Of a stretch of DNA of 64,000 bases, positions 8,969 through 41,436 are shown one piece after another. A program made the translations under genes and the position numbers. The DNA is taken from NCBI RefSeq assembly GCF_031020795.1, contig NZ_JAVHJP010000005.1:189362-253361 (forward strand), in the 5' to 3' direction. Source of the DNA: Hydrogenophaga pseudoflava. Lineage in GTDB: Bacteria > Pseudomonadota > Gammaproteobacteria > Burkholderiales > Burkholderiaceae_C. Numbering within the stretch: position 1 is the stretch's first letter; each line of letters begins with the position of its first letter. The notes below the pieces were generated by a model. That model was given only the letters and a program-made list of their open reading frames with translations. It was not told where the DNA came from and ran no database searches.

Positions 8969-10528
8969 TCAGGCGGCGTGCAGCTTGAACACCTTGACCG
9001 CGTCCAGCAGATGGGTGGCTTGGTCGCGCAGGCTGGCGGCGGCGGCGGCCGACTCTTCGACCAGCGCCGAGTTCTGCTGGGTCATCTGATCCAGGTTCGC
9101 GACCGCCAGGTTCACCTCGCCCACACCGGTCGCCTGCTCCTGATTGGCCTGGCGCATGGTGCCGACCAGCTCGTTCACCCGTTGTACCGACTCGACAATC
9201 TGCTGCATGGTGTGGCCGGCGCTGTTCACCAGCGCGCCGCCCGACTCCACCCGCTGCACCGATTCGCTGATCAGGTCCTTGATCTCCCGGGCCGCCTCGG
9301 CCGAGCGTGTGGCCAGCGACCGCACTTCCGACGCCACCACCGCAAAACCGCGCCCGTGATCGCCCGCGCGGGCCGCCTCGACGGCGGCATTGAGCGCCAG
9401 GATGTTGGTCTGGAAGGCGATACCGTCGATCACGCCGGTGATGTCGGCGATGCGCCGCGAGGAGTGGGTGATCTGGTCCATGGTGGTCATCACCTCGGCC
9501 ACCACGCGGCTGCCATCGGCCGCACTGTGCGAGGCCTGCTGCGAGATGTCGCCCGCCTGGTTGGCGGCGGCGGCGTTGCGCGTCACCGTCTCGTTGATCT
9601 CGGCCATGGCGGCCGCCGTCTGTTCCAGGTTGGACGCCGTCTGTTCGGTGCGGCCCGACAGATCGTTGTTGCCGGCGGCAATCTCCGAGGCCGCGGTCTC
9701 CATGCTGTGCGCCGACTCCTGCACCATGCCCACCATGCGCCGAAGGTTGGCGCTCATCATGGCCATCGAGCGCAGCAGCTGCCCCACCTCATCGTGACCG
9801 TCGCGCACCCGGATGTCCTGGCTGATGTCGCCCTGGGCGATGGCGTGCGCCACCCGGTTGGCCTTGTTCAGGCCCTTCACGATGGAGCGCGAGATGCTGC
9901 GCGCGAGCAGCACCGTGACCACCAGCGTCGCGCCCACGATCATCGCCAGCTTGCGGACATACGAAAAGAGTTCGGCCTTCAGGTCGTCGATGTAGATGCC
10001 CGAACCGATCACCCAACCCCAGGGCTCGAAGCCCTTGACATAGGACAGCTTCTCCACCGGCCGGTCCTGTCCCGGCTTGGGCCAGAGGTAGGGCACGAAG
10101 CCCTGCTGTTCTTTGCGGACCTTGTCGGCGAAGGCCACGAACAGCGCCAATCCGTTGGGGTCCTTCATGCCACTCACGTCGGTGCCATCCAGCGCCGGCT
10201 TGATCGGGTGCATCACGACCCGCGGGGTCATGTCGTTGATCCAGAAGTACTCGTTGCCTTCGTAGCGCAGCTTCGAGATCGCGCCCTTGGCAAGCGCCTG
10301 GGCGGCCGCGCGGTCCATCTGTCCGCTGGTTTCCAGCCCGTGGGCCCAGGCCACGATGCCATGCGCCACCTCCACGGTGCGCCGGGTGGCATCCTGCCGC
10401 GCGGCGTAGCCGTGCCGGTAGGTTTCAACCCCCTGCCACGCCGCCAGAGCCACCAGACAGGCAATGCCCAGAAACGCCAGGAACCGCAGTTTGGCCACGA
10501 TGGACCAGCGCTGAAACCAGTAATGCAT
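8969..10528 (-). CDS. Membrane methyl-accepting chemotaxis protein, single-Cache sensor
   Basis: 519-residue transmembrane chemoreceptor. TM1 is at about 14-32. The periplasmic sensor resembles the sCache_2 family (NEYFWINDMTPRVVMHPIKP, GWVIGSGIYIDD). TM2 is at about 190-210, then HAMP, then the methyl-accepting helices with the tip FQTNILALNAAVEAARAG. It ends FKLHAA with no NWETF-type tether. The start ATG at 10528 is preceded by agaggga and begins just before TM1. sCache_2 receptors often sense small organic acids; the ligand here is unknown. It is convergent with the cNMP-binding gene and monocistronic. Confidence 0.93.
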   Translation of the reverse strand: MHYWFQRWSIVAKLRFLAFLGIACLVALAAWQGVETYRHGYAARQDATRRTVEVAHGIVAWAHGLETSGQMDRAAAQALAKGAISKLRYEGNEYFWINDMTPRVVMHPIKPALDGTDVSGMKDPNGLALFVAFADKVRKEQQGFVPYLWPKPGQDRPVEKLSYVKGFEPWGWVIGSGIYIDDLKAELFSYVRKLAMIVGATLVVTVLLARSISRSIVKGLNKANRVAHAIAQGDISQDIRVRDGHDEVGQLLRSMAMMSANLRRMVGMVQESAHSMETAASEIAAGNNDLSGRTEQTASNLEQTAAAMAEINETVTRNAAAANQAGDISQQASHSAADGSRVVAEVMTTMDQITHSSRRIADITGVIDGIAFQTNILALNAAVEAARAGDHGRGFAVVASEVRSLATRSAEAAREIKDLISESVQRVESGGALVNSAGHTMQQIVESVQRVNELVGTMRQANQEQATGVGEVNLAVANLDQMTQQNSALVEESAAAAASLRDQATHLLDAVKVFKLHAA

Positions 10529-10611
10529 GAGATCCCTCTGAGTTGAATCCGCCTTCGGCAGCGGCGTGAGCAGCCCCAGTCTGGAGCGCCTTTCTCTCAT
10601 GCAATCGGTCG

Positions 10612-10656
10612 ATGAGCCCGGAAATTGAGTGCTTTATGTCACGCTTGCGGGCTCAT
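10612..10656. repeat. Inverted repeat ATGAGCCCG/CGGGCTCAT between mcp and alx
   Basis: Perfect 9-base inverted repeat (10612-10620 and 10648-10656) with a 27-base loop. It lies downstream of the terC/alx stop and upstream of the chemoreceptor gene. It has no T run, so it is not a textbook terminator. Confidence 0.4.
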
Positions 10657-10688
10657 TCGGCGCGGGCGCGGCCAAGGCGCCCGACGCC

Positions 10689-11639
10689 TCAGGTGTTGGG
10701 CGCGGTCTTGGCGCTCCAGACCATGGTGACGGCCAGGATGCCCAGCACCACGCCCAGCGACACCGCCACCGGGATCTTGAAGATGTCGATCAGCATCATC
10801 TTGCTGCCGATGAACACCAGGATCACCGCCAGACCGTAGTTCAGCAGGTGGAAGCGGCTGGCCGCGGCCTGCAGCAGGAAGAACATGGCGCGCAGGCCGA
10901 GGATGGCGAACACGTTGCTGGTGAGCACGATGAACGGGTCCTTGGTGATGGCGAAGATGGCCGGGATGGAGTCCACCGCAAAAATCACGTCGGTCAGGCC
11001 CACCATGGCGATCACCATCAGCAGCGGCGTGGCGATCTTCTTGCCGTTCTCGATGGTGAAGAACTTTTCACCGTCGTAGTGCTTGCTCACCGGCATCACG
11101 CGGCGCAGCAGCTTGAGCGCCGGGTTGTCGTCCAGGCTCTCTTCCTTGCCGGCGGCCCACCACATCTTGACGCCGGTGAGGATCAGGAAGGCGCCGAACA
11201 CATAGAGGATCCAGTGGAACTGCGCCAGCAGCCAGCCGCCCACCAGGATCATGATGGTGCGCAGCACGATGGCGCCCAGGATGCCGATCATCAGCACCCG
11301 CTTCTGGAAGGCCGGCGGCACCGCGAAGTAGGTGAAGATCAGCAGGAACACGAAGATGTTGTCCACCGCCAGGCTCTTCTCGATCAGGTAACCGGTCAGG
11401 AACTCCAGCGACTTCTCGTTGGCCAGCGCGGTCGAGCCGGTGGTGTCCTTGATGGCCCACCACAGCAGACCGTTGAAGACGAAGCTCACCGCCACCCAGG
11501 CCAGCGACCAGTTGAGCGCCTCCTTCACGCCCACGGCGTGCGCGCCCTGCTTCTTGAGCACGACGAAGTCAACGAACAGGGCCGCGAGCACGAAGGCGAC
11601 GAAGACGCCCCAGAGCCAGAGGGGTGCGATGGTTTCCAT
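10689..11639 (-). CDS. alx: TerC/Alx-family membrane protein (probable Mn2+ exporter)
   Basis: 316-residue polytopic inner-membrane protein of the TerC family with about eight or nine transmembrane helices. Family motifs seen are LSLEFLTGYLIEKSLAVDNIF (in part: EKSLAVDNIFVFL) and the symmetric VIFAVDSIPAIFAIT, whose acidic residues (Asp in AVDN and AVDS) lie in the membrane. Alx/TerC members export manganese and may help metallate secreted proteins. The ATG at 11639 is the start that fits the first helix. A long leader carrying a yybP-ykoY riboswitch precedes it, and the sequence aaaagg close to the start is the likely ribosome-binding site. Confidence 0.93.
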   Translation of the reverse strand: METIAPLWLWGVFVAFVLAALFVDFVVLKKQGAHAVGVKEALNWSLAWVAVSFVFNGLLWWAIKDTTGSTALANEKSLEFLTGYLIEKSLAVDNIFVFLLIFTYFAVPPAFQKRVLMIGILGAIVLRTIMILVGGWLLAQFHWILYVFGAFLILTGVKMWWAAGKEESLDDNPALKLLRRVMPVSKHYDGEKFFTIENGKKIATPLLMVIAMVGLTDVIFAVDSIPAIFAITKDPFIVLTSNVFAILGLRAMFFLLQAAASRFHLLNYGLAVILVFIGSKMMLIDIFKIPVAVSLGVVLGILAVTMVWSAKTAPNT

Positions 11640-30782: not shown

Positions 30783-31694
30783 TCAGCCGGTCTTCTTCAC
30801 CTTGACCGGCAGCACCTTGGCGTCGCCCTCGGCGGGGATGACGCGCTCGCTCATCCAGCGCAGCAGGTCGAGCCACATCTGGCGCATCTCGGCGTCCAGC
30901 GGGGTGCGGATGGCGCTGGGCAGCTCGATGGTGACCACCGGCATGCCCTTGTGCACGCCACCGTAGTTGCCGAGGCTGCCCGGGAAGATGCCGACCTGGT
31001 CCAGGTAGAGGCGGCCCAGGCGGGCGGGCGGCACGGTGGGGCCATCGAAGTCAAGCACGCCGTAGGGCGCGTGGATGCTCACGATCAGGTCGGGCTGGAA
31101 GCGCTCCATCTCCTCGTGAAAAAACTTCGACTCGGGCTCGGACAGCGGCTTGGGACCGGGCCAGCGGCGCGGGTCTTTCTTCGTGCGCTGCTCCCAGTAG
31201 ATCCTGGCGTCGCGCGCCCAGTTGGGGGTCGGGAAGTTGCGGTTGAGGTCGACGCCGCGGGCGTTGACCCGCTGGGCCGGCCGCGCCATCAGGCCGTCGG
31301 GGTTGAGGGCGGGAATGAAGCGCCAGTGCACATTGGACGGCGTCTCCACCGCGCGCTGGATCCAGTGCAGCGCCACCGCGGCCGAGGACAGCTCGTCGCC
31401 GTGCATGGCGCCCACCACCAGCACCCGCACCTTGGCGTCGGGGGCCATCACGTCGCGCTGGTACAGGGTTCGGCCCTGCACCGACACACCGCCGTTGGAA
31501 GGCCTGAGCTGGGCCGCGTGGCAGAGCGGCGCTTTCACGTTGGGCAGGCGGGCGACAAACTCGATGCAGGGGTCCACCGTCTTGTCGGCGACAGGTGCCG
31601 TCGGCGCACCAGAGGCGCCCGCGTGGGCGGCCAGCGCCAGTCCCAGTGTGAGGAGCGGGCGAGCGGACAGGGAAAAACGGTGGTCACGGGTCAT
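30783..31694 (-). CDS. M14-family zinc carboxypeptidase, secreted
   Basis: 303-residue protein with a signal peptide ([17 protein letters not shown]). The zinc ligands are in GAMHGDE (His, Glu) and SIHAPYG (His); the catalytic Glu is in VTIELP; LNRNFP is the substrate-binding Asn-Arg of M14 enzymes. The pattern (MHGDELS, DLNRNFPT) resembles the murein peptide amidase MpaA branch, but the signal peptide places this one in the periplasm. ATG at 31694 has a TAGAAT seven bases upstream. Only 25 bases from the end of the flavoprotein gene, so partial read-through is possible. Confidence 0.87.
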   Translation of the reverse strand: MTRDHRFSLSARPLLTLGLALAAHAGASGAPTAPVADKTVDPCIEFVARLPNVKAPLCHAAQLRPSNGGVSVQGRTLYQRDVMAPDAKVRVLVVGAMHGDELSSAAVALHWIQRAVETPSNVHWRFIPALNPDGLMARPAQRVNARGVDLNRNFPTPNWARDARIYWEQRTKKDPRRWPGPKPLSEPESKFFHEEMERFQPDLIVSIHAPYGVLDFDGPTVPPARLGRLYLDQVGIFPGSLGNYGGVHKGMPVVTIELPSAIRTPLDAEMRQMWLDLLRWMSERVIPAEGDAKVLPVKVKKTG

Positions 31695-31701
31695 GACCAC
31701 G

Positions 31702-31719: not shown

Positions 31720-32991
31720 TCAGTCGTCCTTTTCGCCGGGCTCGTACAGGGTTTCGCGGCCCATGCGGTCGAGGATGAGTTCGGCCGTCCAGGGCAGCAT
31801 CAGCGCGCCGCAGCGGCTGTCGCGGTACAGGCGCTCCAGCGGCAGGTGCTTGAGCATGCTCTGGCCGCCGCAGGTGCGAATGGCCAGCCGCGCCAGGTCG
31901 TTGGCGCCTTCCATCACCGCGTGGTGCGCGGCGTAGAGGCGCAGCTTCTCGTCCTTGCTCGGGTTGGGCTTGGCCTCGAAGATGGCGCGGGTGAACAGGC
32001 TCTTCATCGACTCGAGCTGCAGCCGCATCTGCGCCACCGTGATCTGCTTGGTGGGGAACTGGCGGCGCTTGATGGGTGGCTCGCCCGGCACCTCGCCGCG
32101 CAGGTACTGCACCGTGAAGTCGTAGGCCGCATTCGCCACGCCCAGGTAGGTGGGCGCGAGGGTGAAGAACATGGCCGGCCAGGTCTGCGCGCCCTTGAAA
32201 TAGATGCCGCGCGGCATGAGCTGCTCGTCGTCGCTCACGAACACGTCCTTGAACGTGAGGTTGCGACTGACGGTGCCGCGCATGCCCAGCGGGTCCCAGT
32301 CGCCACTGATGGAGAAGCCCTCGGACGTGGCCGGCACGCTGATGTAGAGCGTGTCGCGCGCGTCGGGGTGCTGGTCGCCCTTGTCTTCGGTGCAGAGCAC
32401 GCCGTAGTAGTCGGCCGCGCCCGAGAGGCTCGCCCAGATCTTGCGGCCGTTGATGAGCCAGCCGCCCTCGACCTTCTTTGCCGTGGTGCCGAAGGGCGCG
32501 CGGCCGGCCGCGGCCGCCGTGCCTTCGCTGAACGGTTGCGCGTAGAGCTTGCCCCCGTTCACGATGCGCGCGAAGTGCAGCTTGCGGCGCGCGGCGTGTT
32601 CGGCGCGCTGCTCCTCGCTCATCGCAATGCCGTCGGCCAGCACGCCGGTCCACATGGTGGAGCAGATGTGCATGTTCCAGGTCAGCGCGGTGGCGCCGCA
32701 GAAGCGCCCGATCTCGGCCGCGACCATCATGTAGGTCGGGAAGTCGGCCCCCGCGCCGCCGAACTCGGTGGGCACGCAGAGCTTGAGAAAGCCCTGCTCG
32801 CGCAGGTCGTCGTAGTTGGCGAAGGGGAAGCTGGCTTCCTGGTCCCACAACGCGGCGCGCGCGGCGAACTTGTCGCGGCCCAGCGCATGCGCCCTGGCCA
32901 GCCACTCGCGCTGCAGCGGCGTGAAGGGAAAGTCGCCCACCGCGGGCGTGAAGTCCAGACCGGTGACCGGGTTGACGGGGCGGGTACTCAT
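31720..32991 (-). CDS. Acyl-CoA-dehydrogenase-fold flavoprotein, candidate flavin-dependent hydroxylase
   Basis: 423-residue protein with the acyl-CoA dehydrogenase fold: N-terminal helical domain, middle beta domain (GMRGTVSRNLTFKDVFV) and C-terminal helices. In dehydrogenases the end of the fold reads RDAR...IYEGT with the catalytic Glu; here it is YRDSRCGALMLPWTAE (389-404), so that Glu is absent. Group D two-component monooxygenases (HpaB/C2, DszC, HsaA types) share this fold and lack the base. With a flavin reductase gene divergent and a NicX-like dioxygenase in the same operon, a hydroxylase role is the better inference. Start at 32991 has gaggaga upstream; 38 bases after the hydrolase gene. 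Confidence 0.8.
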   Translation of the reverse strand: MSTRPVNPVTGLDFTPAVGDFPFTPLQREWLARAHALGRDKFAARAALWDQEASFPFANYDDLREQGFLKLCVPTEFGGAGADFPTYMMVAAEIGRFCGATALTWNMHICSTMWTGVLADGIAMSEEQRAEHAARRKLHFARIVNGGKLYAQPFSEGTAAAAGRAPFGTTAKKVEGGWLINGRKIWASLSGAADYYGVLCTEDKGDQHPDARDTLYISVPATSEGFSISGDWDPLGMRGTVSRNLTFKDVFVSDDEQLMPRGIYFKGAQTWPAMFFTLAPTYLGVANAAYDFTVQYLRGEVPGEPPIKRRQFPTKQITVAQMRLQLESMKSLFTRAIFEAKPNPSKDEKLRLYAAHHAVMEGANDLARLAIRTCGGQSMLKHLPLERLYRDSRCGALMLPWTAELILDRMGRETLYEPGEKDD

Positions 32992-33029
32992 GCGGATGTC
33001 TCCTCTTTGGGGTGTGTGATCGGGCAGAT

Positions 33030-33848
33030 TCAGTGCAGGTCCGGGCGCGTCCTGGGCGCGGATTCGCGGAGGAAGTCCAGCAGGATGCGGTCGAACTCGT
33101 CGGGCGCTTCCAGGTTCATCAGGTGGCCCACGCCGGCCATCTCGGTGTAGCGCGCGTTCGGGATCGCCTGCGCCATCTGCTTCATCACCGCGGGCGAGGC
33201 CACGCGGTCGAACTCCCCGCCGACCAGCAGCGTGGGCACGCCGATGTGGGACAGCGCGGCCTGGCGGTCGAAGGTGACGATGCAGTCCAGCGCGCGCCGG
33301 TAGGTGGCGGCCGGCACGCGGCCCATGCACTGCTCGGCCAGGCGCACGCCCTCGGGCAGTGAGCCCGGGCCGACCATCTGCGGCACCAGCTTCGCGGCCA
33401 TGTCGGCCATGCTCTGGCCGGCGTCCAGCGGCGCGGTGCGCTGGGCGATGAACTGCCGGGCCCAGGCCTCGGCGTTCTGGCCGTCGCTGCGTTTGCCGAA
33501 GGCCGCCGAGGTACCGCAGAGCATGAGCTTGCGCACCTTGTCGGGCCGGCGCGCGATGACTTCCTGCGCCACCATGCCGCCCATGCTGTGCCCCACAAGG
33601 ACCACGCTCTCGCACTGCAGCGCGTCGATGAGGTTCACGCAACTCTGCGCCAGGCCCTTGAAGGTGTAGGGCTCGATGGGTGCGCTGTGGCCGTAGCCGG
33701 GCATGTCCCAGGCCACCGCGCGGTAGCCCACGCTGGCCAGGGTTTCGACCTGCGGCGCAAAGGCCAGGTGCCCGCCACCGATGCCGTGCAGCATGAGCAC
33801 GGTGGTGGCGCCGTCGCCCAGTGTCGTGAAAGTAGGGAGGCTGTTCAA
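33030..33848 (-). CDS. Alpha/beta hydrolase, candidate N-formylmaleamate deformylase-like
   Basis: 272-residue alpha/beta hydrolase. Catalytic triad candidates are Ser88 in GHSMGG, Asp214 in GGEFDRV and His242 in GVGHLMN; the oxyanion loop is HGIGGGH. The frame must begin at a TTG (33848) that overlaps the stop of the NicX-like gene (TTGA), with gaaaggtga upstream; the next Met is already inside the first strands. In nicotinate degradation the enzyme after NicX is NicD, an alpha/beta hydrolase that removes formate from N-formylmaleamate; position and size fit that role. Esterase or lactonase action on a related ring-opened product is the alternative. Confidence 0.82.
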   Translation of the reverse strand: MNSLPTFTTLGDGATTVLMLHGIGGGHLAFAPQVETLASVGYRAVAWDMPGYGHSAPIEPYTFKGLAQSCVNLIDALQCESVVLVGHSMGGMVAQEVIARRPDKVRKLMLCGTSAAFGKRSDGQNAEAWARQFIAQRTAPLDAGQSMADMAAKLVPQMVGPGSLPEGVRLAEQCMGRVPAATYRRALDCIVTFDRQAALSHIGVPTLLVGGEFDRVASPAVMKQMAQAIPNARYTEMAGVGHLMNLEAPDEFDRILLDFLRESAPRTRPDLH

Positions 33849-34897
33849 GAGATCACCTTTCCGGCGTCGACGACGACCGTGCCATCGAGCGACACGGTGC
33901 AGTCGCGCATGGGCCAGTCGAAGTGGCCGCGGGTGTAGCGGCCGGCGGTTTCGTTGGCGCCCGTGCTGTAGAGGAAATTGCCCGCAAAGGCGCGCAGCTC
34001 GGTGCCGTTGAAGTCGCGCTTGTCGTACAGCGCCATGCTGTCCCAGCGCGCGGCGTCGCTCAGGCCATAGCCCACATGGCTCACCGCGTAAGCTTCTTTT
34101 TCTCCCCAGGCTGCGAAGTAGCTGCGCAGCAGCTCGGCGTCCACGCCGCCGCCGTCGATGTGGGTCACGTAGTCGTGCTCGATGGTCAGCGTGATGGGGC
34201 GTTCGATGTAGCGCTTGAAGGTCAGGTTCACGTCGCCCTCGGCCAGCACCAGCCGGCCGCTCACGCTGCCCGCCGCCGGAAAAGCCAGCACCAGGCCGCC
34301 AGGCCAGTGCGTGAGCGTGCCGGGGCGCGTGGTGCTGCCCCAGTTGCCGCCCACCACCGCGCCGTGCAGCGAGATGGACAGCTCGGTGCCGGCCGGCGAG
34401 GTCACGCGCATGGCCTGGGCGCCGCGCAGACGCTTCACATGCGCCTTCACCCGCGCCTCGGTGGCATCGTCAGGCAGCAGGCGCGCCAGTGCCTCGGGGT
34501 GCTCGTTGCTCACGTAGACGATGCGCGGCTGCGTGATGCCGTTGCCCTGCAGGATGGCCGGCAGCTCGGGCGCGTGCATCAGGCCCTCGACCGTGCAATC
34601 GATCACCAAGGTACAGGCCTGCAGTGCCGCGATCACCGGCAACTGCTGTTGAATGGCCGGTGATGCCCCGGTGGAGCGGGTCACGGGTTCGCCCGCGGCG
34701 CCGAACACCGAGGGCAGGGTCAGCACGAAGGCCGGGGCACCGATGCGCGCCGCCGCGAGGCGCGCCAGTTCGACCAGAACCGGACGGCTCTGGCTTTCGC
34801 CGAGAATCGCAACCGTGTCGCCCGGCTGCAGCGCACAACGCCGCAGCACCGCTTCAAACGCGTCGATCCAGGCGGGTTCGATCCGCTCCTGCAACAT
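33845..34897 (-). CDS. nicX: NicX-like 2,5-dihydroxypyridine 5,6-dioxygenase family protein
   Basis: 350-residue protein, the same length as Pseudomonas putida NicX. Shared stretches are YAVSHVGYGLS, VTHIDGGGVDAELLRSY, AFAGNFLYSTG and RDCTVSLDGTVVV. The Fe(II) ligands of NicX (His, His, Asp; as I recall His265, His318 and Asp320) match His274, His325 and Asp327 here with the same His-X-Asp spacing. NicX opens the 2,5-dihydroxypyridine ring to N-formylmaleamate. The fold also resembles M29 aminopeptidases, so such an annotation may appear in databases. ATG at 34897 with aggagac upstream. First gene of the unit with the hydrolase and the flavoprotein. Exact substrate unproven. Confidence 0.83.
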   Translation of the reverse strand: MLQERIEPAWIDAFEAVLRRCALQPGDTVAILGESQSRPVLVELARLAAARIGAPAFVLTLPSVFGAAGEPVTRSTGASPAIQQQLPVIAALQACTLVIDCTVEGLMHAPELPAILQGNGITQPRIVYVSNEHPEALARLLPDDATEARVKAHVKRLRGAQAMRVTSPAGTELSISLHGAVVGGNWGSTTRPGTLTHWPGGLVLAFPAAGSVSGRLVLAEGDVNLTFKRYIERPITLTIEHDYVTHIDGGGVDAELLRSYFAAWGEKEAYAVSHVGYGLSDAARWDSMALYDKRDFNGTELRAFAGNFLYSTGANETAGRYTRGHFDWPMRDCTVSLDGTVVVDAGKVIS

Positions 34898-34955
34898 GGG
34901 TCGTCTCCTGTTTTGGGGGGCCTGCCATCGGGGAAATGGTGGCCGCGGACACATT

Positions 34956-34965
34956 ATTCATGAAT
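34956..34965. promoter_or_regulatory. Palindrome ATTCATGAAT in the nicX/flavin reductase gap
   Basis: Perfect 10-bp palindrome in an AT-rich patch of the 87-base divergent gap. MarR proteins bind such AT-rich palindromes, and a MarR domain is encoded by the adjacent gene. It directly precedes a TATAAA. Confidence 0.5.
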
Positions 34966-34970
34966 TTTCA

Positions 34971-34976
34971 TATAAA
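34971..34976 (+). promoter_or_regulatory. -10-like TATAAA before flavin reductase gene
   Basis: TATAAA eight bases before the ATG at 34985 and five bases after the ATTCATGAAT palindrome. A repressor on the palindrome would block it. Confidence 0.5.
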
Positions 34977-34984
34977 TTGCAGCC

Positions 34985-36046
34985 ATGTCCCCGTCCCGTG
35001 CCGCCGGCCACTCCGCCCAACCGCCCGATTTTTCGCCGCGCGACTTCCGCGCGACGCTGGGCATGTTCGCGACCGGCGTCACCATCGTCACGGCGCGCAA
35101 CGACCAGGGTGAACCCGTCGGCCTGACGGCCAGCTCGTTCAACTCGGTCTCGCTGGACCCGCCGCTGGTGCTGTGGAGCCTGGGCAAGGCGGCCGGCTCG
35201 ATGGCGGTGTTCAGCAACGGCCGGCACTACGCGATCAACGTGCTCGCCGCCGACCAGCAGGCGCTGGCGGAGCGGTTCGCCGCGCGCGGCGTCGACCGCT
35301 GGGCCGGTGTGGCCTTCAGCGACGGCGCGGGTGGCGCGCCGCTGCTCGAAGGCTGCGTCGCCACTTTCGAGTGCTTCAACCGCAGCCAGTACACCGAGGG
35401 CGACCACGTCATCTTCGTGGGCGAGGTCGAGCGCTGCGCGCGCCGCGCCGACGCCTCGCCCCTGCTCTACCACGGCGGGCGCTTCTACACCGAGCACCCC
35501 CTCCACGGCGCACCGGCCGACGCGAGCGCGCCGCAGCCGCCCGACGGCCGCTTCGTCGGCAGCTACCTGGGCTACCTGCTCGGGCAGGCCAGCCACGCGG
35601 TCTACCGCGACTTCGAGAACGCCATCGCCGCCCAGGGCCTGACCCACATCGCCTGGCGCGTGCTGGCCGTGCTGCACGACGCCGCGCTCAGCCACCCCGG
35701 CAGCCACCCCAACGGCCAGGGCGCCATCGCCGTCGGCCAGCTGGCGCACGACGTGCTGGCCAAGCAGCCCACCGTCACCAAGCTCGTGCAGCGCATGGCC
35801 GAGGACGGTCTGGTGCAGCTGCTGGCCGACCCCGCCGACCAGCGCCGCACCCTGGTGGTGGCCACCAACGAAGGCCGGCGCATCGCCGCCGCGCTGATCG
35901 AACAGGCCCGCGCGCAGGAAAGCAGCCTGCTCTCGCGCTGGTCGGCGCACGAAGCGGACACGCTCAAACGGCATCTGCAACGCCTCGTGAACGAGGAGCC
36001 CCCACGCTCCGCCGCTGCGCGGGTCGCTGCCCCCCGCGGGGGCTGA
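34985..36046 (+). CDS. Flavin reductase fused to a C-terminal MarR domain
   Basis: 353-residue fusion. Residues about 20-180 are a flavin reductase domain of the HpaC type (TLGMFATGVTIVTAR, LTASSFNSVSLDPPLV, GRHYAINVLA), which makes reduced flavin for a partner oxygenase. Residues about 190-340 are a complete MarR winged helix (IAVGQLAHDVLAKQPTVTKLV, wing ADPADQRRTLVV). The same architecture is known in the C1 reductase of Acinetobacter p-hydroxyphenylacetate hydroxylase, where the MarR part senses substrate and controls flavin reduction. Here it may do that, repress the divergent nicX operon, or both. The final residues (RSAAARVAAPRGG) are low-complexity. Confidence 0.88.
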   Translation: MSPSRAAGHSAQPPDFSPRDFRATLGMFATGVTIVTARNDQGEPVGLTASSFNSVSLDPPLVLWSLGKAAGSMAVFSNGRHYAINVLAADQQALAERFAARGVDRWAGVAFSDGAGGAPLLEGCVATFECFNRSQYTEGDHVIFVGEVERCARRADASPLLYHGGRFYTEHPLHGAPADASAPQPPDGRFVGSYLGYLLGQASHAVYRDFENAIAAQGLTHIAWRVLAVLHDAALSHPGSHPNGQGAIAVGQLAHDVLAKQPTVTKLVQRMAEDGLVQLLADPADQRRTLVVATNEGRRIAAALIEQARAQESSLLSRWSAHEADTLKRHLQRLVNEEPPRSAAARVAAPRGG

Positions 36047-36108
36047 TCCGGCTTGGGGCGGCCCGGCGCCGGATCGCCCGTTCACCTTTGCGCTACCCTC
36101 CTGCCCCC

Positions 36109-37008
36109 ATGACCGCCGTCCAACGCAAAGACCACCTCGACACCTTCGCCATCACCGTTCTGGTGGCCTGCTGCGCCTTCTGGGGCTTCCAGCAGATCCT
36201 GATCAAGTTCGCCGGCCGCGAAATCCCACCGCTGTGGCAGGCCTCGGTGCGCATGGCCGGCGCCACCGCCCTGCTCTGGCTCTGGTGCCAGTTCCGCGGC
36301 GTGAAGCTGTTCAACCGCGACGGCTCGCTCAAGGGCGGCCTGCTCGTGGGCCTGCTGTTCGCGGCCGAGTTCTGCCTGATCTACCTGGGCCTGCAGCACA
36401 CCAGCGCCTCGCGCCTGACCGTGTTCCTCTACACCAGCCCGTTCTGGGTGGCCGTGCTGCTGCCGCGCTTCGTGCCCTCGGAGAAGCTGCGCAAGATCCA
36501 ATGGGTCGGCCTGGTGATCGCCTTCAGCGCCGTGGGCATCGCGTTCAGCGAAGCCTTCCTGCACGGCTCCGCGCCGGGCCAGTGGAAGGGCGACGCCATG
36601 GGCCTGGCGGCCGGCATGTTCTGGGGCCTGACCACCATCGCCATCCGCACCACCAAGGTGGCCGGCGTCCAGGCCGAGAAGTCGCTGTTCTACCAACTGA
36701 GCGTGACCGCCGTGGTCTGCCCGCTGCTGTCGCTGGCGCTGGGCGAGACCTGGTCCTTCGACTACTCCGCGCTGGCCTGGGGCTCGGTGTTTCTGCAGAC
36801 CGCCGTGGGCGCCTTCGCCAGCTACCTGGCCTGGATGTGGATGCTGCGCCACTACCCCGCGACGCAGATGAGCACCTTCACCTTCCTCACCCCGCTGTTC
36901 GCGCTGGTCTTCGGCGTGGTGCTGCTGGGCGAGCCGCTGACGCTGCAGCTGGTGCTGGCGCTGGTGGGCGTGGCGACGGGGATCGTGCTGGTGAGCCGCA
37001 AGGGCTAA
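36109..37008 (+). CDS. EamA-family transporter (DMT superfamily)
   Basis: 299-residue inner-membrane protein with ten predicted helices in two EamA repeats (first about 12-140, second about 160-295). Typical features are FWGFQQILIKF in helix 1 and LLGEPLTLQLVLALVGVATGIVL at the end (key part GEPLTLQLVLALVGV). Such proteins often export amino acids or metabolites. It follows the flavin reductase gene by 62 bases and may belong to the same catabolic region. No clear ribosome-binding site before ATG 36109. Confidence 0.9.
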   Translation: MTAVQRKDHLDTFAITVLVACCAFWGFQQILIKFAGREIPPLWQASVRMAGATALLWLWCQFRGVKLFNRDGSLKGGLLVGLLFAAEFCLIYLGLQHTSASRLTVFLYTSPFWVAVLLPRFVPSEKLRKIQWVGLVIAFSAVGIAFSEAFLHGSAPGQWKGDAMGLAAGMFWGLTTIAIRTTKVAGVQAEKSLFYQLSVTAVVCPLLSLALGETWSFDYSALAWGSVFLQTAVGAFASYLAWMWMLRHYPATQMSTFTFLTPLFALVFGVVLLGEPLTLQLVLALVGVATGIVLVSRKG

Positions 37009-37370: not shown

Positions 37371-39167
37371 TCACCGCAGGTGGTGCACCGCCGCCTGCCC
37401 GTACACCGGCGTGTCCAGCCCCTCATACCGCGCCTTCAGTTGCAGCGACAGGAACTGCGAGTAGTGGCGGCTCTGGTGCAGGTTGCCGCCGTGGATCCAG
37501 AGCTGCTTCTGGTTGGTCGGCTTCCACATGTTGCGCAGTTCGCCTTCCCACGGCCCCGGGTCCTTCGTCGTGCTGGAGCCCAGGCCCCAGACCTTGCCGA
37601 CGCGGTCGGCCACTTCGGGCGACACCAGGTCGGCCAGCCAGTGGTTCATCGAGCCGTAGCCGGTGGCGTAGACGATCAGGTCGGCCGGCAGTTCGGTGCC
37701 GTCGGTGAGCGTCACGCTCTTGGGGTTGATGCGCTCGATGTTCACGCCGCTCTTGAGCTTGATGCTGCCGTTGGCCACCAGCTCGCTCGCGCCGACGTCG
37801 ATGTAGTAGCCCGAGCCGCGGCGCAGGTACTTCATGAACAGGCCCGAGCCGTCGTCGCCGAAGTCGAGCAGGAAGCCCGCCTTCTCCAGCCGGCTGTAGA
37901 GGTCCGCGTCGCGCTTCTTCATCTCCTCGTACACGGGGATGTGGAAGCTGTGCATGATCTTGTAGGGCACGCTGGCGAAGATCAGGTCGGCCTTGTGGTG
38001 GTCGATGCCGTTCTTCACCGCCTCCTCGCTGTACAGCCCGCCCAGCGCCAGCTCCATCAGCGAGTTCGACGGCGCAATGTGCGTGCTCGTGCGCTGGATC
38101 ATGGTGACGTCGGCGCCGTGTTCCCACAGCGCCGCACAGATGTCGTGCGCCGAGTTGTTGGAGCCGAGCACCACCGCCTTCTTGCCCGCGTACTTTTCGG
38201 GGCCGGGGTGCTTGCTGGAGTGGTGCTGGTCGCCCTCGAAGGTCTCGGCGCCCGCGATCTTGGGCACGTTCGGGTAGCCCGAGACCCCCAGCGCGAACAC
38301 CAGCTGCTTGGGCCGCAGCGTCACCTCTTCACCGTTGCGGTCGACCACCACGGTCCACTCGCCCTTGGCCTCGTCGTAGCTGGCCTTCTTGGCGGTGGTG
38401 GAGCCCCAGTAGTTGATCTCCATGACCTTGGTGTACATCTCCAGCCAGTCGCCCACCTTGTCCTTGGGCGCGAACACCGGCCAGTCGTCCGGGAAGGGCA
38501 GATACGGCAGGTGGTCGTACCAGACCGGGTCGTGCAGGCACAGGCTCTTGTAGCGGTTGCGCCAGCTGTCGCCGGGCCGCGGGTTCTTCTCGACCACGAT
38601 GGTCGGCACGCCCAGGCGGCGCAGCCGCGCGGCCAGGATGATGCCGCCCTGCCCGCCGCCGATGATGACCACGTAGGGCTGCTCTTCGTAGCCCAGCCGG
38701 GCCTGCTCGTCCTGCCGCAGTTCGAGCCAGCTCTTGCGGCCCTTGTGCACGCCGTGTTCGGCGCCCTTGATGCGGCGAGGCCCCTTCTTCTCTTCAAAGC
38801 CCTTGAGCTCGACCATGGTGGTCAGCAGGGTCCAGGCCTTGTCGCCTTTGAGGCGCAGGTGGCCGCGGCCGCGCGAGACGCGGGTCTCGAAGGTGAACCA
38901 GGCTTCGGTGACGCCGTCGGCCTCGGTGGCCTCGCCGTCGAGCTGGAAGTTGGACGCGCCCGCGTCGGCCTGGCGCGCGGCGAGCATGTCGCGCACCGCG
39001 TCGTGGCCTTCCTGCGTGCGGATGTTCCAGGTGAAGGACACGAGGTCGCGCCAGTAGCAGTCGGCGTCGAAGAGGGGCAGCACGTTGTCGGGATTGCCGG
39101 AGGCCAGGGCGGCTCCGAAAGCGTCCAGCCAGCGCTGGGCCCGCTGGGAGGGCGTGTTTGCAGTCAT
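37371..39167 (-). CDS. NTF2-domain/flavin monooxygenase fusion (FMO-like)
   Basis: 598-residue protein. Residues 1-125 are an NTF2/SnoaL-like domain (WLDAFGAALASGNPDNVLPLFDADCYWRD; key part NVLPLFDADCYWRD). The rest is an FMO-type oxidoreductase with the FAD motif GGGQGG (170-175), an NADPH motif GSNNSAHD (335-342) and a Baeyer-Villiger/FMO-like segment FEGDQHHSSKHPG (310-322). ATYGY-type motif near the end is ATGYGS. Likely oxygenates a small ketone, amine or similar compound. ATG at 39167 has caggagac upstream. A sigma-54 promoter and TGTCAC sites precede it, and an AcoR-type activator gene lies upstream, so expression should be substrate-induced. Confidence 0.9.
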   Translation of the reverse strand: MTANTPSQRAQRWLDAFGAALASGNPDNVLPLFDADCYWRDLVSFTWNIRTQEGHDAVRDMLAARQADAGASNFQLDGEATEADGVTEAWFTFETRVSRGRGHLRLKGDKAWTLLTTMVELKGFEEKKGPRRIKGAEHGVHKGRKSWLELRQDEQARLGYEEQPYVVIIGGGQGGIILAARLRRLGVPTIVVEKNPRPGDSWRNRYKSLCLHDPVWYDHLPYLPFPDDWPVFAPKDKVGDWLEMYTKVMEINYWGSTTAKKASYDEAKGEWTVVVDRNGEEVTLRPKQLVFALGVSGYPNVPKIAGAETFEGDQHHSSKHPGPEKYAGKKAVVLGSNNSAHDICAALWEHGADVTMIQRTSTHIAPSNSLMELALGGLYSEEAVKNGIDHHKADLIFASVPYKIMHSFHIPVYEEMKKRDADLYSRLEKAGFLLDFGDDGSGLFMKYLRRGSGYYIDVGASELVANGSIKLKSGVNIERINPKSVTLTDGTELPADLIVYATGYGSMNHWLADLVSPEVADRVGKVWGLGSSTTKDPGPWEGELRNMWKPTNQKQLWIHGGNLHQSRHYSQFLSLQLKARYEGLDTPVYGQAAVHHLR

Positions 39168-39217
39168 GGGTTGTCTCCTGTGATGCCGGCCTCGGTGCGG
39201 GCCGGTGCCTTGTGCAT

Positions 39218-39233
39218 CACAAGACGCGTGCCA
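39218..39233 (-). promoter_or_regulatory. Sigma-54 promoter of the FMO gene
   Basis: Minus-strand TGGCACGCGTCTTGTG matches the -24/-12 consensus TGGCAC-N5-TTGCA except for T in place of C in TTGC. It lies about 50 bases before the FMO start codon. Confidence 0.7.
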
Positions 39234-39288
39234 TGCGGGCGGCGCGCGCAAGTGCTTGATCTGCTTGCAGATTTCAAGCAGCGATGGG

Positions 39289-39335
39289 TGTCACAACCCG
39301 TGCACCTGTCACCCACCCGGAGTGACAGCTGTCAC
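39289..39335. promoter_or_regulatory. Upstream activator sites with TGTCAC half-sites
   Basis: TGTCAC occurs at 39289, 39307 and 39330. The last is part of a perfect 14-bp palindrome GTGACAGCTGTCAC (39322-39335). The palindrome centre is about 96 bases upstream of the -24 element, normal for an enhancer-binding protein. Confidence 0.6.
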
Positions 39336-39443
39336 GGCATCTCCGGCGCGCAGTGTCTGATGCCAGAACGCCGCGGAACCGGCTTTGCCGGGCCGCCAGC
39401 GTTGCCCCCCTCTGGGGGTCGCGCGCAGCGCGGCAGGGGGCGT

Positions 39444-41354
<1,911 letters not shown>

Positions 41355-41436
41355 GGCGCGTCTCCGGGACAAAGGCTGGCAGGCTGCGGAAAGCCTTGCA
41401 CCTTCGGATCAGCGCGGGGTGGTGTCAATGGAGGGT

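What the first reader, a model, noticed from the sequence alone, without database searches (positions are those of the whole stretch)
31720..36046. Compact candidate pathway for opening an N-heteroaromatic (pyridine-type) ring
One minus-strand unit encodes a NicX-like Fe(II) ring-cleaving dioxygenase (ligands His274, His325, Asp327), an alpha/beta hydrolase in the position of NicD, and an acyl-CoA-dehydrogenase-fold protein. A flavin reductase is divergent. Together they supply hydroxylation, ring cleavage and deformylation. Known nicotinate and picolinate clusters use different hydroxylases (molybdenum enzymes or FAD monooxygenases), so a reductase plus ACAD-fold oxygenase feeding a NicX would be a new combination as far as I know.
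Basis: partly seen in the sequence, partly recalled or inferred. Interest (0 to 1): 0.75.

Follow-up and report, generated by a model that had tools for sequence, protein, structure and literature searches.

The report
Ring-opening gene set feeding anthranilate breakdown
A compact, widely conserved bacterial gene set looks like machinery for opening a nitrogen-containing ring, but its gene neighbours point to indole-type compounds being turned into anthranilate rather than to pyridines; this would put genes to a breakdown route proposed decades ago, and it still needs a laboratory test.

Summary
The four genes are real, correctly placed and conserved as a unit. The 350-residue protein has the NicX fold and its four iron ligands. 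The third gene encodes an acyl-CoA-dehydrogenase fold without the catalytic Glu and CoA-binding Arg. The pyridine reading fits poorly: the glutamate with which NicX holds 2,5-dihydroxypyridine is replaced in 120 of 120 clade members, and no NicE or NicF match lies in any of 103 loci. Of 397 family genomes, 41 of 42 carriers against 187 of 355 non-carriers have the gene I read as 2-aminobenzoyl-CoA monooxygenase/reductase; in some lineages the unit sits beside that gene or beside tryptophan-to-anthranilate genes. Most likely mechanism, inferred: indole is hydroxylated to indoxyl, the NicX-type enzyme splits it to N-formylanthranilate, and the hydrolase releases anthranilate. The placement upstream of anthranilate is well supported; the substrate is not proven.

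The parts
33845..34897 (-). NicX-fold Fe(II) dioxygenase of a separate clade; ligands His274, Ser311, His325, Asp327; NicX Glu177 position is Asn185, clade-specific Glu104
33030..33848 (-). alpha/beta hydrolase, 272 aa (TTG start overlaps the dioxygenase stop by 4 bases); inferred N-formyl amide hydrolase
   Evidence: Pfam PF00561 117 bits; PcaD-like models, all below cut-off; not NicD-like by sequence
31720..32991 (-). ACAD-fold protein, 423 aa, inferred reduced-flavin-dependent hydroxylase; catalytic Glu position Leu399, CoA-binding Arg position Phe275, both invariant in 20 aligned members
34985..36046 (+). flavin reductase (about 35027-35500) fused to a MarR-type domain (about 35576-35992); its last codons lie in a dispersed repeat
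34960..34971 (.). palindrome ATGAATTTTCAT in the divergent promoter, the only ATGAAWWTTCAT in the 4.98-Mb genome; inferred MarR operator
36109..37008 (+). EamA-type transporter, conserved neighbour in Hydrogenophaga and Ramlibacter loci; role unproven
30783..31700 (-). M14 / AstE-like metallocarboxypeptidase, neighbour in many loci of the genus and near relatives; probably not part of the pathway

Best explanation
The unit makes anthranilate from a benzo-fused N-heterocycle, most likely indole. Inferred steps: (1) the flavin reductase supplies reduced flavin to the ACAD-fold protein, which hydroxylates indole at C3 to indoxyl; (2) the NicX-type Fe(II) dioxygenase splits the N1-C2H=C3(OH) double bond of indoxyl, the same N-CH=C(OH) motif that NicX splits in 2,5-dihydroxypyridine, giving N-formylanthranilate; (3) the alpha/beta hydrolase removes formate, giving anthranilate; (4) anthranilate is activated to 2-aminobenzoyl-CoA and passes to 2-aminobenzoyl-CoA monooxygenase/reductase, whose gene cluster is elsewhere in this genome. 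The MarR half of the reductase represses the divergent promoter through one palindrome until the substrate or an intermediate binds. Shown by computation: gene content, conservation, residue changes, the palindrome, co-occurrence with the 2-aminobenzoyl-CoA module. Inferred: every reaction, the substrate and the regulation.
For: Co-occurrence: 41 of 42 carriers of the dioxygenase among 397 family genomes have NF006101 above cut-off, against 187 of 355 non-carriers (p = 6e-10); by genus 23 of 23 against 68 of 103 (p = 5e-4) (lists checked in 105). Three carriers (G181, G268, G320) lack the hydrolase and ACAD-fold genes nearby; without them 38 of 39 (p = 5e-9). Control: canonical nicX carriers 11 of 15, not enriched over the rest (p = 0.29). 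Outside the family draw, 20 of 22 carrier genomes reached through named loci have it. Linkage: NF006101-type gene in 8 of 103 loci, perhaps two lineages; kynA, kynU, kynB in 7 of 103, all Pandoraea. The own genome has the NF006101 gene clustered with enoyl-CoA hydratase, acyl-CoA dehydrogenase and CoA ligase genes. Anthranilate 1,2-dioxygenase model above cut-off in 0 of 23 genomes, though 4 of 23 have weaker relatives. Pocket: Glu177 lost and Glu104 gained in 120 of 120, iron ligands kept in 120 of 120. Precedent: ACAD-fold indole hydroxylases IacA (review table) and XiaF (passages); indole-bound TdsC 5xdc is among the fold matches, rank 46. [quoted passage not shown]
Against: Nothing tests the substrate directly. 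One of 42 family carriers (G251) has the CoA ligase, hydratase, dehydrogenase and RidA-like genes but no NF006101 match; 2 of 22 others lack it. In the genus set 16 of 19 carriers (misses G019, G020, G031, all under 90% complete) against 9 of 17 non-carriers have it, p = 0.07. Co-occurrence is partly shared ancestry and genome size; neither was controlled beyond counting genera. Tryptophan dioxygenase matches in 33 of 36 genus genomes and does not discriminate. The operator is not shared with the 2-aminobenzoyl-CoA cluster (one site in the own genome). The ACAD-fold protein has Leu where 5gj7 has a His that I take to be the catalytic His of group D hydroxylases, so its chemistry is not secured. 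A CoA ligase accompanies the unit in 48 of 103 loci and should not be needed twice. Alphaproteobacterial versions carry a glutamine-synthetase-like gene and an amino-acid permease that this model does not explain. A paper on indole-fed sludge names none of the carrier genera I looked for.
Confidence: 0.48

Rival explanations
1. The unit makes anthranilate (or 2-aminobenzoyl-CoA) from another N-heterocycle such as a 4-quinolone, kynurenate or a substituted indole, by the same hydroxylation, ring opening and amide hydrolysis logic.
For: Same co-occurrence and linkage evidence as for indole; Pandoraea puts the unit beside tryptophan-to-anthranilate genes; the pocket change fits any bulkier ring.
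Against: Cleavage of 3-hydroxy-4-quinolone at C2-C3 would give N-formylisatinate, which needs a further decarboxylation step not seen in the unit; C3-substituted indoles would give ketones, not anthranilate (chemistry, inferred).
Confidence: 0.2
2. The unit degrades anthranilate itself: hydroxylation to 5-hydroxyanthranilate, ring cleavage next to the OH, loss of formate by the hydrolase, then CoA activation.
For: Kynurenine-pathway genes beside the unit deliver anthranilate; loss of Glu177 could make room for the carboxylate; an acyl-CoA ligase accompanies the unit in 48 of 103 loci; a gentisate-dioxygenase-like gene (305 bits, cut-off 442) is near the Aminobacter version. A 5-hydroxyanthranilate route is recalled from older literature on Nocardia, not read here.
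Against: 41 of 42 family carriers already have the 2-aminobenzoyl-CoA gene, so two parallel anthranilate routes would have to travel together; 187 genomes have that gene without the unit's dioxygenase.
Confidence: 0.15
3. One reading: the unit opens a hydroxypyridine through 2,5-dihydroxypyridine and N-formylmaleamate.
For: NicX fold and iron ligands; His105 equivalent kept in 120 of 120 and His189 equivalent in 119 of 120; a NicE-like gene, 56% identical, lies unlinked in the own genome.
Against: Glu177 replaced in 120 of 120; NicE and NicF matches in 0 of 103 loci; in 60 relatives a NicF homologue of 60% or more only in G033, beside a canonical nicX; link to anthranilate catabolism instead. 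Two annotated nic clusters looked at keep the NicC-, NicE-, NicD-, NicX- and NicF-type genes together (Nic names mine).
Confidence: 0.1
4. The ACAD-fold protein is a genuine acyl-CoA dehydrogenase of beta-oxidation and the neighbours are an incidental mixture.
For: Its best Foldseek hits by E-value are acyl-CoA dehydrogenases; a CoA ligase and beta-oxidation genes lie near in some lineages.
Against: Catalytic Glu position is Leu399 and CoA-binding Arg position Phe275, invariant in 20 of 20 (from the 1jqi alignment, for the Glu extended by three residues past its end; the roles are recalled); its best sequence match is 5gj7/5z8t, the latter titled flavin-containing monooxygenase; a flavin reductase domain lies in 83 of 103 loci.
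Confidence: 0.05

Closest known systems
NicX / nic cluster of nicotinate degradation (Pseudomonas putida NicX; annotated clusters in Azospirillum L054 and Caballeronia L055)
   Same: Fold and iron ligands of the dioxygenase; a hydrolase next to it; presumed cleavage of N-CH=C(OH)
   Different: Glu177 replaced and Glu104 inserted; ACAD-fold protein plus reductase instead of an FAD monooxygenase; no NicE or NicF match in the loci; hydrolase not NicD-like; anthranilate context
iif / ind indole-degradation clusters (Acinetobacter, Cupriavidus, Burkholderia)
   Same: Oxygenase plus flavin reductase, anthranilate as product, 2-aminobenzoyl-CoA route downstream in Cupriavidus (review passages)
   Different: iif uses a short-chain dehydrogenase and a cofactor-independent oxygenase and, as I recall, a styrene-monooxygenase-type oxygenase; no NicX-type enzyme is named there
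ACAD-fold indole hydroxylases IacA and XiaF (group D flavin monooxygenases)
   Same: Fold, need for a separate flavin reductase, indole oxidation to indigo
   Different: No close sequence match seen; the catalytic His of this group (XiaF His371) is probably Leu here; different pathways
p-Hydroxyphenylacetate hydroxylase reductase C1 (flavin reductase fused to a MarR-like domain)
   Same: Same domain order, NF045919 205 bits over residues 15-336, 5zc2 as best PDB match
   Different: Below the family cut-off of 340; divergent from a conserved palindrome that tracks the MarR domain, which suggests that the MarR half also binds DNA

Membership tests
NicX (2,5-dihydroxypyridine 5,6-dioxygenase) | NicX fold | tested here: met
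   TM 0.87-0.88 to 7cn3/7cup
NicX (2,5-dihydroxypyridine 5,6-dioxygenase) | Iron ligands His265, Ser302, His318, Asp320 | tested here: met
   kept in 120 of 120 clade members (ligands from abstract and passages of PMC7910607)
NicX (2,5-dihydroxypyridine 5,6-dioxygenase) | Glu177 that holds N1 and O1 of the substrate | tested here: not met
   Asn in the window; N 58, V 32, G 24, T 4, S 2 of 120; Glu in 4 of 4 nic-type sequences
NicX (2,5-dihydroxypyridine 5,6-dioxygenase) | Activity on 2,5-dihydroxypyridine | not testable with these tools
   needs an enzyme assay
nic-type pathway | Linked NicE and NicF | tested here: not met
   0 of 103 loci at E <= 1e-12; an unlinked NicE-like gene, 56% identical, in the own genome
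NicD (N-formylmaleamate deformylase) | Sequence similarity to NicD beyond the general fold | tested here: not met
   29 bits, 21% identity over 177 residues to the Azospirillum nic-cluster hydrolase
Acyl-CoA dehydrogenase | Catalytic Glu and CoA-binding Arg | tested here: not met
   Leu399 and Phe275, invariant in 20 of 20; Glu position extended three residues past the end of the 1jqi alignment; roles recalled
Group D (ACAD-fold) flavin monooxygenase | ACAD fold with a partner flavin reductase | tested here: met
   reductase domain in 83 of 103 loci
Group D (ACAD-fold) flavin monooxygenase | Catalytic His (XiaF His371) | tested here: inconclusive
   a His of 5gj7 aligns with Leu; no alignment to XiaF was made
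HPAH reductase C1 | NF045919 cut-off 340 bits | tested here: not met
   205 bits, nearly full-length match
iif indole cluster | IifA and IifB with their oxygenase | tested here: not met
   the unit's genes belong to other families; the genome was not searched for iif genes

The most novel reading that the evidence does not exclude
A widespread, unnamed bacterial pathway in which a NicX-type iron dioxygenase has been re-tooled from a pyridine to a bicyclic indole ring, carrying out the indole - indoxyl - N-formylanthranilate - anthranilate route for which I found no genes in my literature searches, controlled by a bifunctional protein that is both the flavin reductase of the first step and the repressor of the operon, acting at a single site in the genome.
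Probability: 0.35. Interest if true: 0.8.

Novelty: new variant of a known kind. Interest (0 to 1): 0.62.

Why it matters
Indole is an abundant signal and pollutant; a 2018 review says the iif cluster should not be the exclusive indole-degradation cluster (passages). In the plasmid records whose annotation I saw, the proteins are called peptidase M29 and acyl-CoA dehydrogenase. If the reading holds, it gives genes to the N-formylanthranilate route, extends NicX chemistry to bicyclic rings and offers a simple colour test. Even if the substrate is wrong, it corrects the annotation of a common enzyme family and ties it to anthranilate metabolism.

Tried and rejected
Pyridine reading: rejected as leading explanation. 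Direct anthranilate breakdown: first favoured after the kynurenine genes were seen (note), then lowered because 41 of 42 family carriers already have the 2-aminobenzoyl-CoA gene. Correlation with tryptophan dioxygenase in the genus was uninformative: 33 of 36 genomes match. The growth substrate of Ensifer adhaerens W2 was sought; nothing found. Literature: search listings; abstract, section list and passages of PMC7910607; passages only of PMC9871250, PMC6221969, PMC12538310, PMC4675989, PMC5481743, PMC11434297. No paper was read whole. PMC4675989 has no occurrence of Hydrogenophaga, Ramlibacter, Polaromonas or Pandoraea, so it gives no support. The RNA fold at the 3' end of the reductase gene is not better than shuffles (z -1.19).

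Limits of the counts. The 103 loci (80, 20, L043-L045) and the 125 loci contain some genomes twice, because two tools reached the same genome; many loci are cut by contig ends. Of the 125, L103 and L136 gave under 300 residues and were dropped. In one search, 8 loci of the alphaproteobacterial and nic types were left out and 116 of the remaining 117 counted. In one search the best 80 of 568 were kept. The genomes without a match were not all listed, so genome size was not controlled. The 22 genomes were my choice among the 80 loci. L115 was dropped from the ACAD-fold alignment for a frame error.

Full report
What is there. The window lies in a 4.98-Mb genome whose nearest named match is Hydrogenophaga flava (L065, 96% identical dioxygenase). 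The minus-strand operon is dioxygenase (33845-34897), hydrolase (33030-33848), ACAD-fold protein (31720-32991); the reductase (34985-36046) is divergent. The reductase is a fusion of flavin reductase and MarR domain. The dioxygenase has one relative among solved structures by sequence, NicX of P. putida (193 bits), and its model matches it at TM 0.87-0.88; aminopeptidases AmpT and PepS come next, which may explain the annotation 'peptidase M29' in the plasmid records.

Is it a unit. A dioxygenase match was found in 21 of 60 relatives; by identity 20 are of this clade, 19 of the 36 genus genomes plus G037 of another family, while G033 has only a 39% one. The order reductase / dioxygenase - hydrolase - ACAD-fold is kept in the loci fetched. 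In 103 loci the hydrolase is found in 92, the ACAD-fold gene in 90, the reductase domain in 83, the MarR domain in 75 and a CoA ligase in 48; many loci are cut by contig ends and some genomes occur twice. L162, L169 and L171 have the dioxygenase without hydrolase or ACAD-fold gene in about 20 kb. Alphaproteobacterial plasmids have a related set, about 50% identical, with a glutamine-synthetase-like gene, an amino-acid permease and, in L048, a hydrolase fused to a polyketide-cyclase-like domain.

Why not pyridine. In NicX the substrate is held by Glu177 (N1, O1), His189 (O1) and His105 (passages). In 124 aligned sequences, the 120 of this clade keep the four iron ligands and the His105 equivalent in 120 of 120 and the His189 equivalent in 119, but Glu177 is Asn, Val, Gly, Thr or Ser in 120 of 120 and a Glu (window Glu104) is inserted in 120 of 120. 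The 4 nic-type sequences (L054 and L055 in annotated clusters, L046 beside a NicF homologue, L047) keep Glu177, lack the insertion and have Phe at the His105 position; the paper reports that the H105F mutant stays active (passage). Neither NicE nor NicF matches in any of 103 loci at E <= 1e-12. In 60 relatives, NicE homologues of 56% or more occur in the own genome (unlinked contig) and in G009, G013 and G026, which lack the unit; a NicF homologue of 60% or more only in G033. The hydrolase is not NicD-like in sequence.

What it goes with. In the 7 Pandoraea loci tryptophan 2,3-dioxygenase, kynureninase and arylformamidase lie beside the unit; in L117 all three pass their cut-offs. In L043, L114, L125, L127, L134, L172, L173 and L176 the neighbour is an NF006101-type gene, named salicylyl-CoA 5-hydroxylase/oxidoreductase by NCBI (1110 and 1319 bits in the two scanned, cut-off 1078). 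I take it as 2-aminobenzoyl-CoA monooxygenase/reductase; that identification is recalled. It is supported by neighbouring genes: a benzoate-type CoA ligase (347 bits, cut-off 375), enoyl-CoA hydratase and acyl-CoA dehydrogenase, and a short protein that I call RidA-like from memory (no NCBIfam match at 1e-20). The co-occurrence test used one draw of 397 family genomes at least 90% complete: dioxygenase 42 (E <= 1e-70), NF006101 above cut-off 228, both 41 (lists compared). Fisher: 41 of 42 against 187 of 355, p = 6e-10; genera 23 of 23 against 68 of 103, p = 5e-4; control canonical nicX 11 of 15 against 217 of 382, p = 0.29. The miss, G251, has the rest of the module beside the unit. In the genus set the contrast is weak: 16 of 19 against 9 of 17, p = 0.07. 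In 24 genomes of other families only G037, a carrier, and G045, a non-carrier, are above cut-off. In 22 further carrier genomes that I chose from the named loci, 20 have it, and in 23 genomes none has the anthranilate 1,2-dioxygenase model above cut-off, 4 having weaker relatives. The one-sided dependence (carriers nearly always have the module, the module often occurs alone) suggests that the unit lies upstream and delivers anthranilate.

Chemistry. NicX splits N1-C6H=C5(OH). A bicyclic compound with the same motif whose cleavage gives an N-formyl derivative of anthranilate is indoxyl. ACAD-fold, reductase-dependent indole hydroxylases exist: IacA (review table) and XiaF (passages). [quoted passage not shown] the review holds that iif is not the exclusive indole cluster and that a 2-aminobenzoyl-CoA cluster was vital downstream in its authors' strain (passages). 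The replacement of Glu177 by smaller neutral residues fits a benzo ring where the pyridone amide sat. All this is inference; no substrate was tested. The weak point is the ACAD-fold protein: it lacks the dehydrogenase's Glu and Arg but probably also the His typical of group D hydroxylases. The reductase partner argues for a hydroxylase.

Regulation. The divergent promoter holds ATGAATTTTCAT at 34960-34971. The pattern ATGAAWWTTCAT is present once in the own genome (0.02 expected from the window's base composition) and upstream of the dioxygenase in 15 of 15 genomes searched (20 sites in all; the reversed control pattern occurs once in each of two genomes; positions matched by hand). In 116 loci with enough upstream sequence it is present in 72 of 88 with a MarR domain and 2 of 28 without (p = 8e-13). 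It is present in 6 of 6 loci scored as fused and 63 of 76 scored as split. These loci are not independent. So the MarR domain, fused or separate, is the likely binder; fusion of a flavin reductase to a working local repressor would be unusual, since the MarR-like domain of the HPAH reductase is, as I recall, a ligand-sensing domain.

Verdict. Observation confirmed. Interpretation partly supported: ring opening and reductase-dependent hydroxylation likely, pyridine probably not. Best reading: anthranilate-forming unit, most likely from indole (0.48); some anthranilate-forming substrate, indole or another, about 0.68.

Noticed in passing
window 35981-36080: The stop codon and last codons of the reductase-MarR gene lie in a dispersed, GC-rich element of roughly 80-100 bp; one search lists 39 further partial copies in the genome at 85-100% identity, and six inspected copies match over 79-100 bases at 92-96%.
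   Followed up: partly
loci scored as fused (L029, L030, L032, L065, L069, L082) against split loci: Flavin reductase and MarR are one fused protein in some species and two adjacent genes in others, with the same promoter palindrome in 6 of 6 fused and 63 of 76 split loci.
   Followed up: yes
L048, L049, L051, L052 (Ensifer, Aminobacter, Shinella, Sinorhizobium plasmids): A related unit with, in the annotated L048 and L049, a glutamine-synthetase-like gene and an amino-acid permease, and in L048 a hydrolase fused to a polyketide-cyclase-like domain; in Aminobacter also gentisate-dioxygenase-like, FAH and nitrilase-type genes. Substrate unknown.
   Followed up: partly
L050 (Dolichospermum sp. 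DET69 plasmid, 9998-11245): A lone ACAD-fold relative, 56% identical, on a cyanobacterial plasmid typed as conjugative, without the dioxygenase or hydrolase in the 21 kb looked at.
   Followed up: no
G000 contig C3, L179 9952-12312: A NicE-like gene (56%) beside an FAD-monooxygenase-like reading frame (one TGA inside the match) on an 83.5-kb contig of the same genome: possibly a separate maleate- or nicotinate-type remnant.
   Followed up: no
Polaromonas genomes G067, G068, G069 and some others: The NF006101 match is listed with one in-frame TGA in several genomes; cause not examined.
   Followed up: no
window 37371-41372: A flavin-containing monooxygenase with a SnoaL-like N-terminal domain next to a sigma-54 activator (AcoR-like by my reading), found near the unit only in H. 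flava and a few other loci.
   Followed up: no
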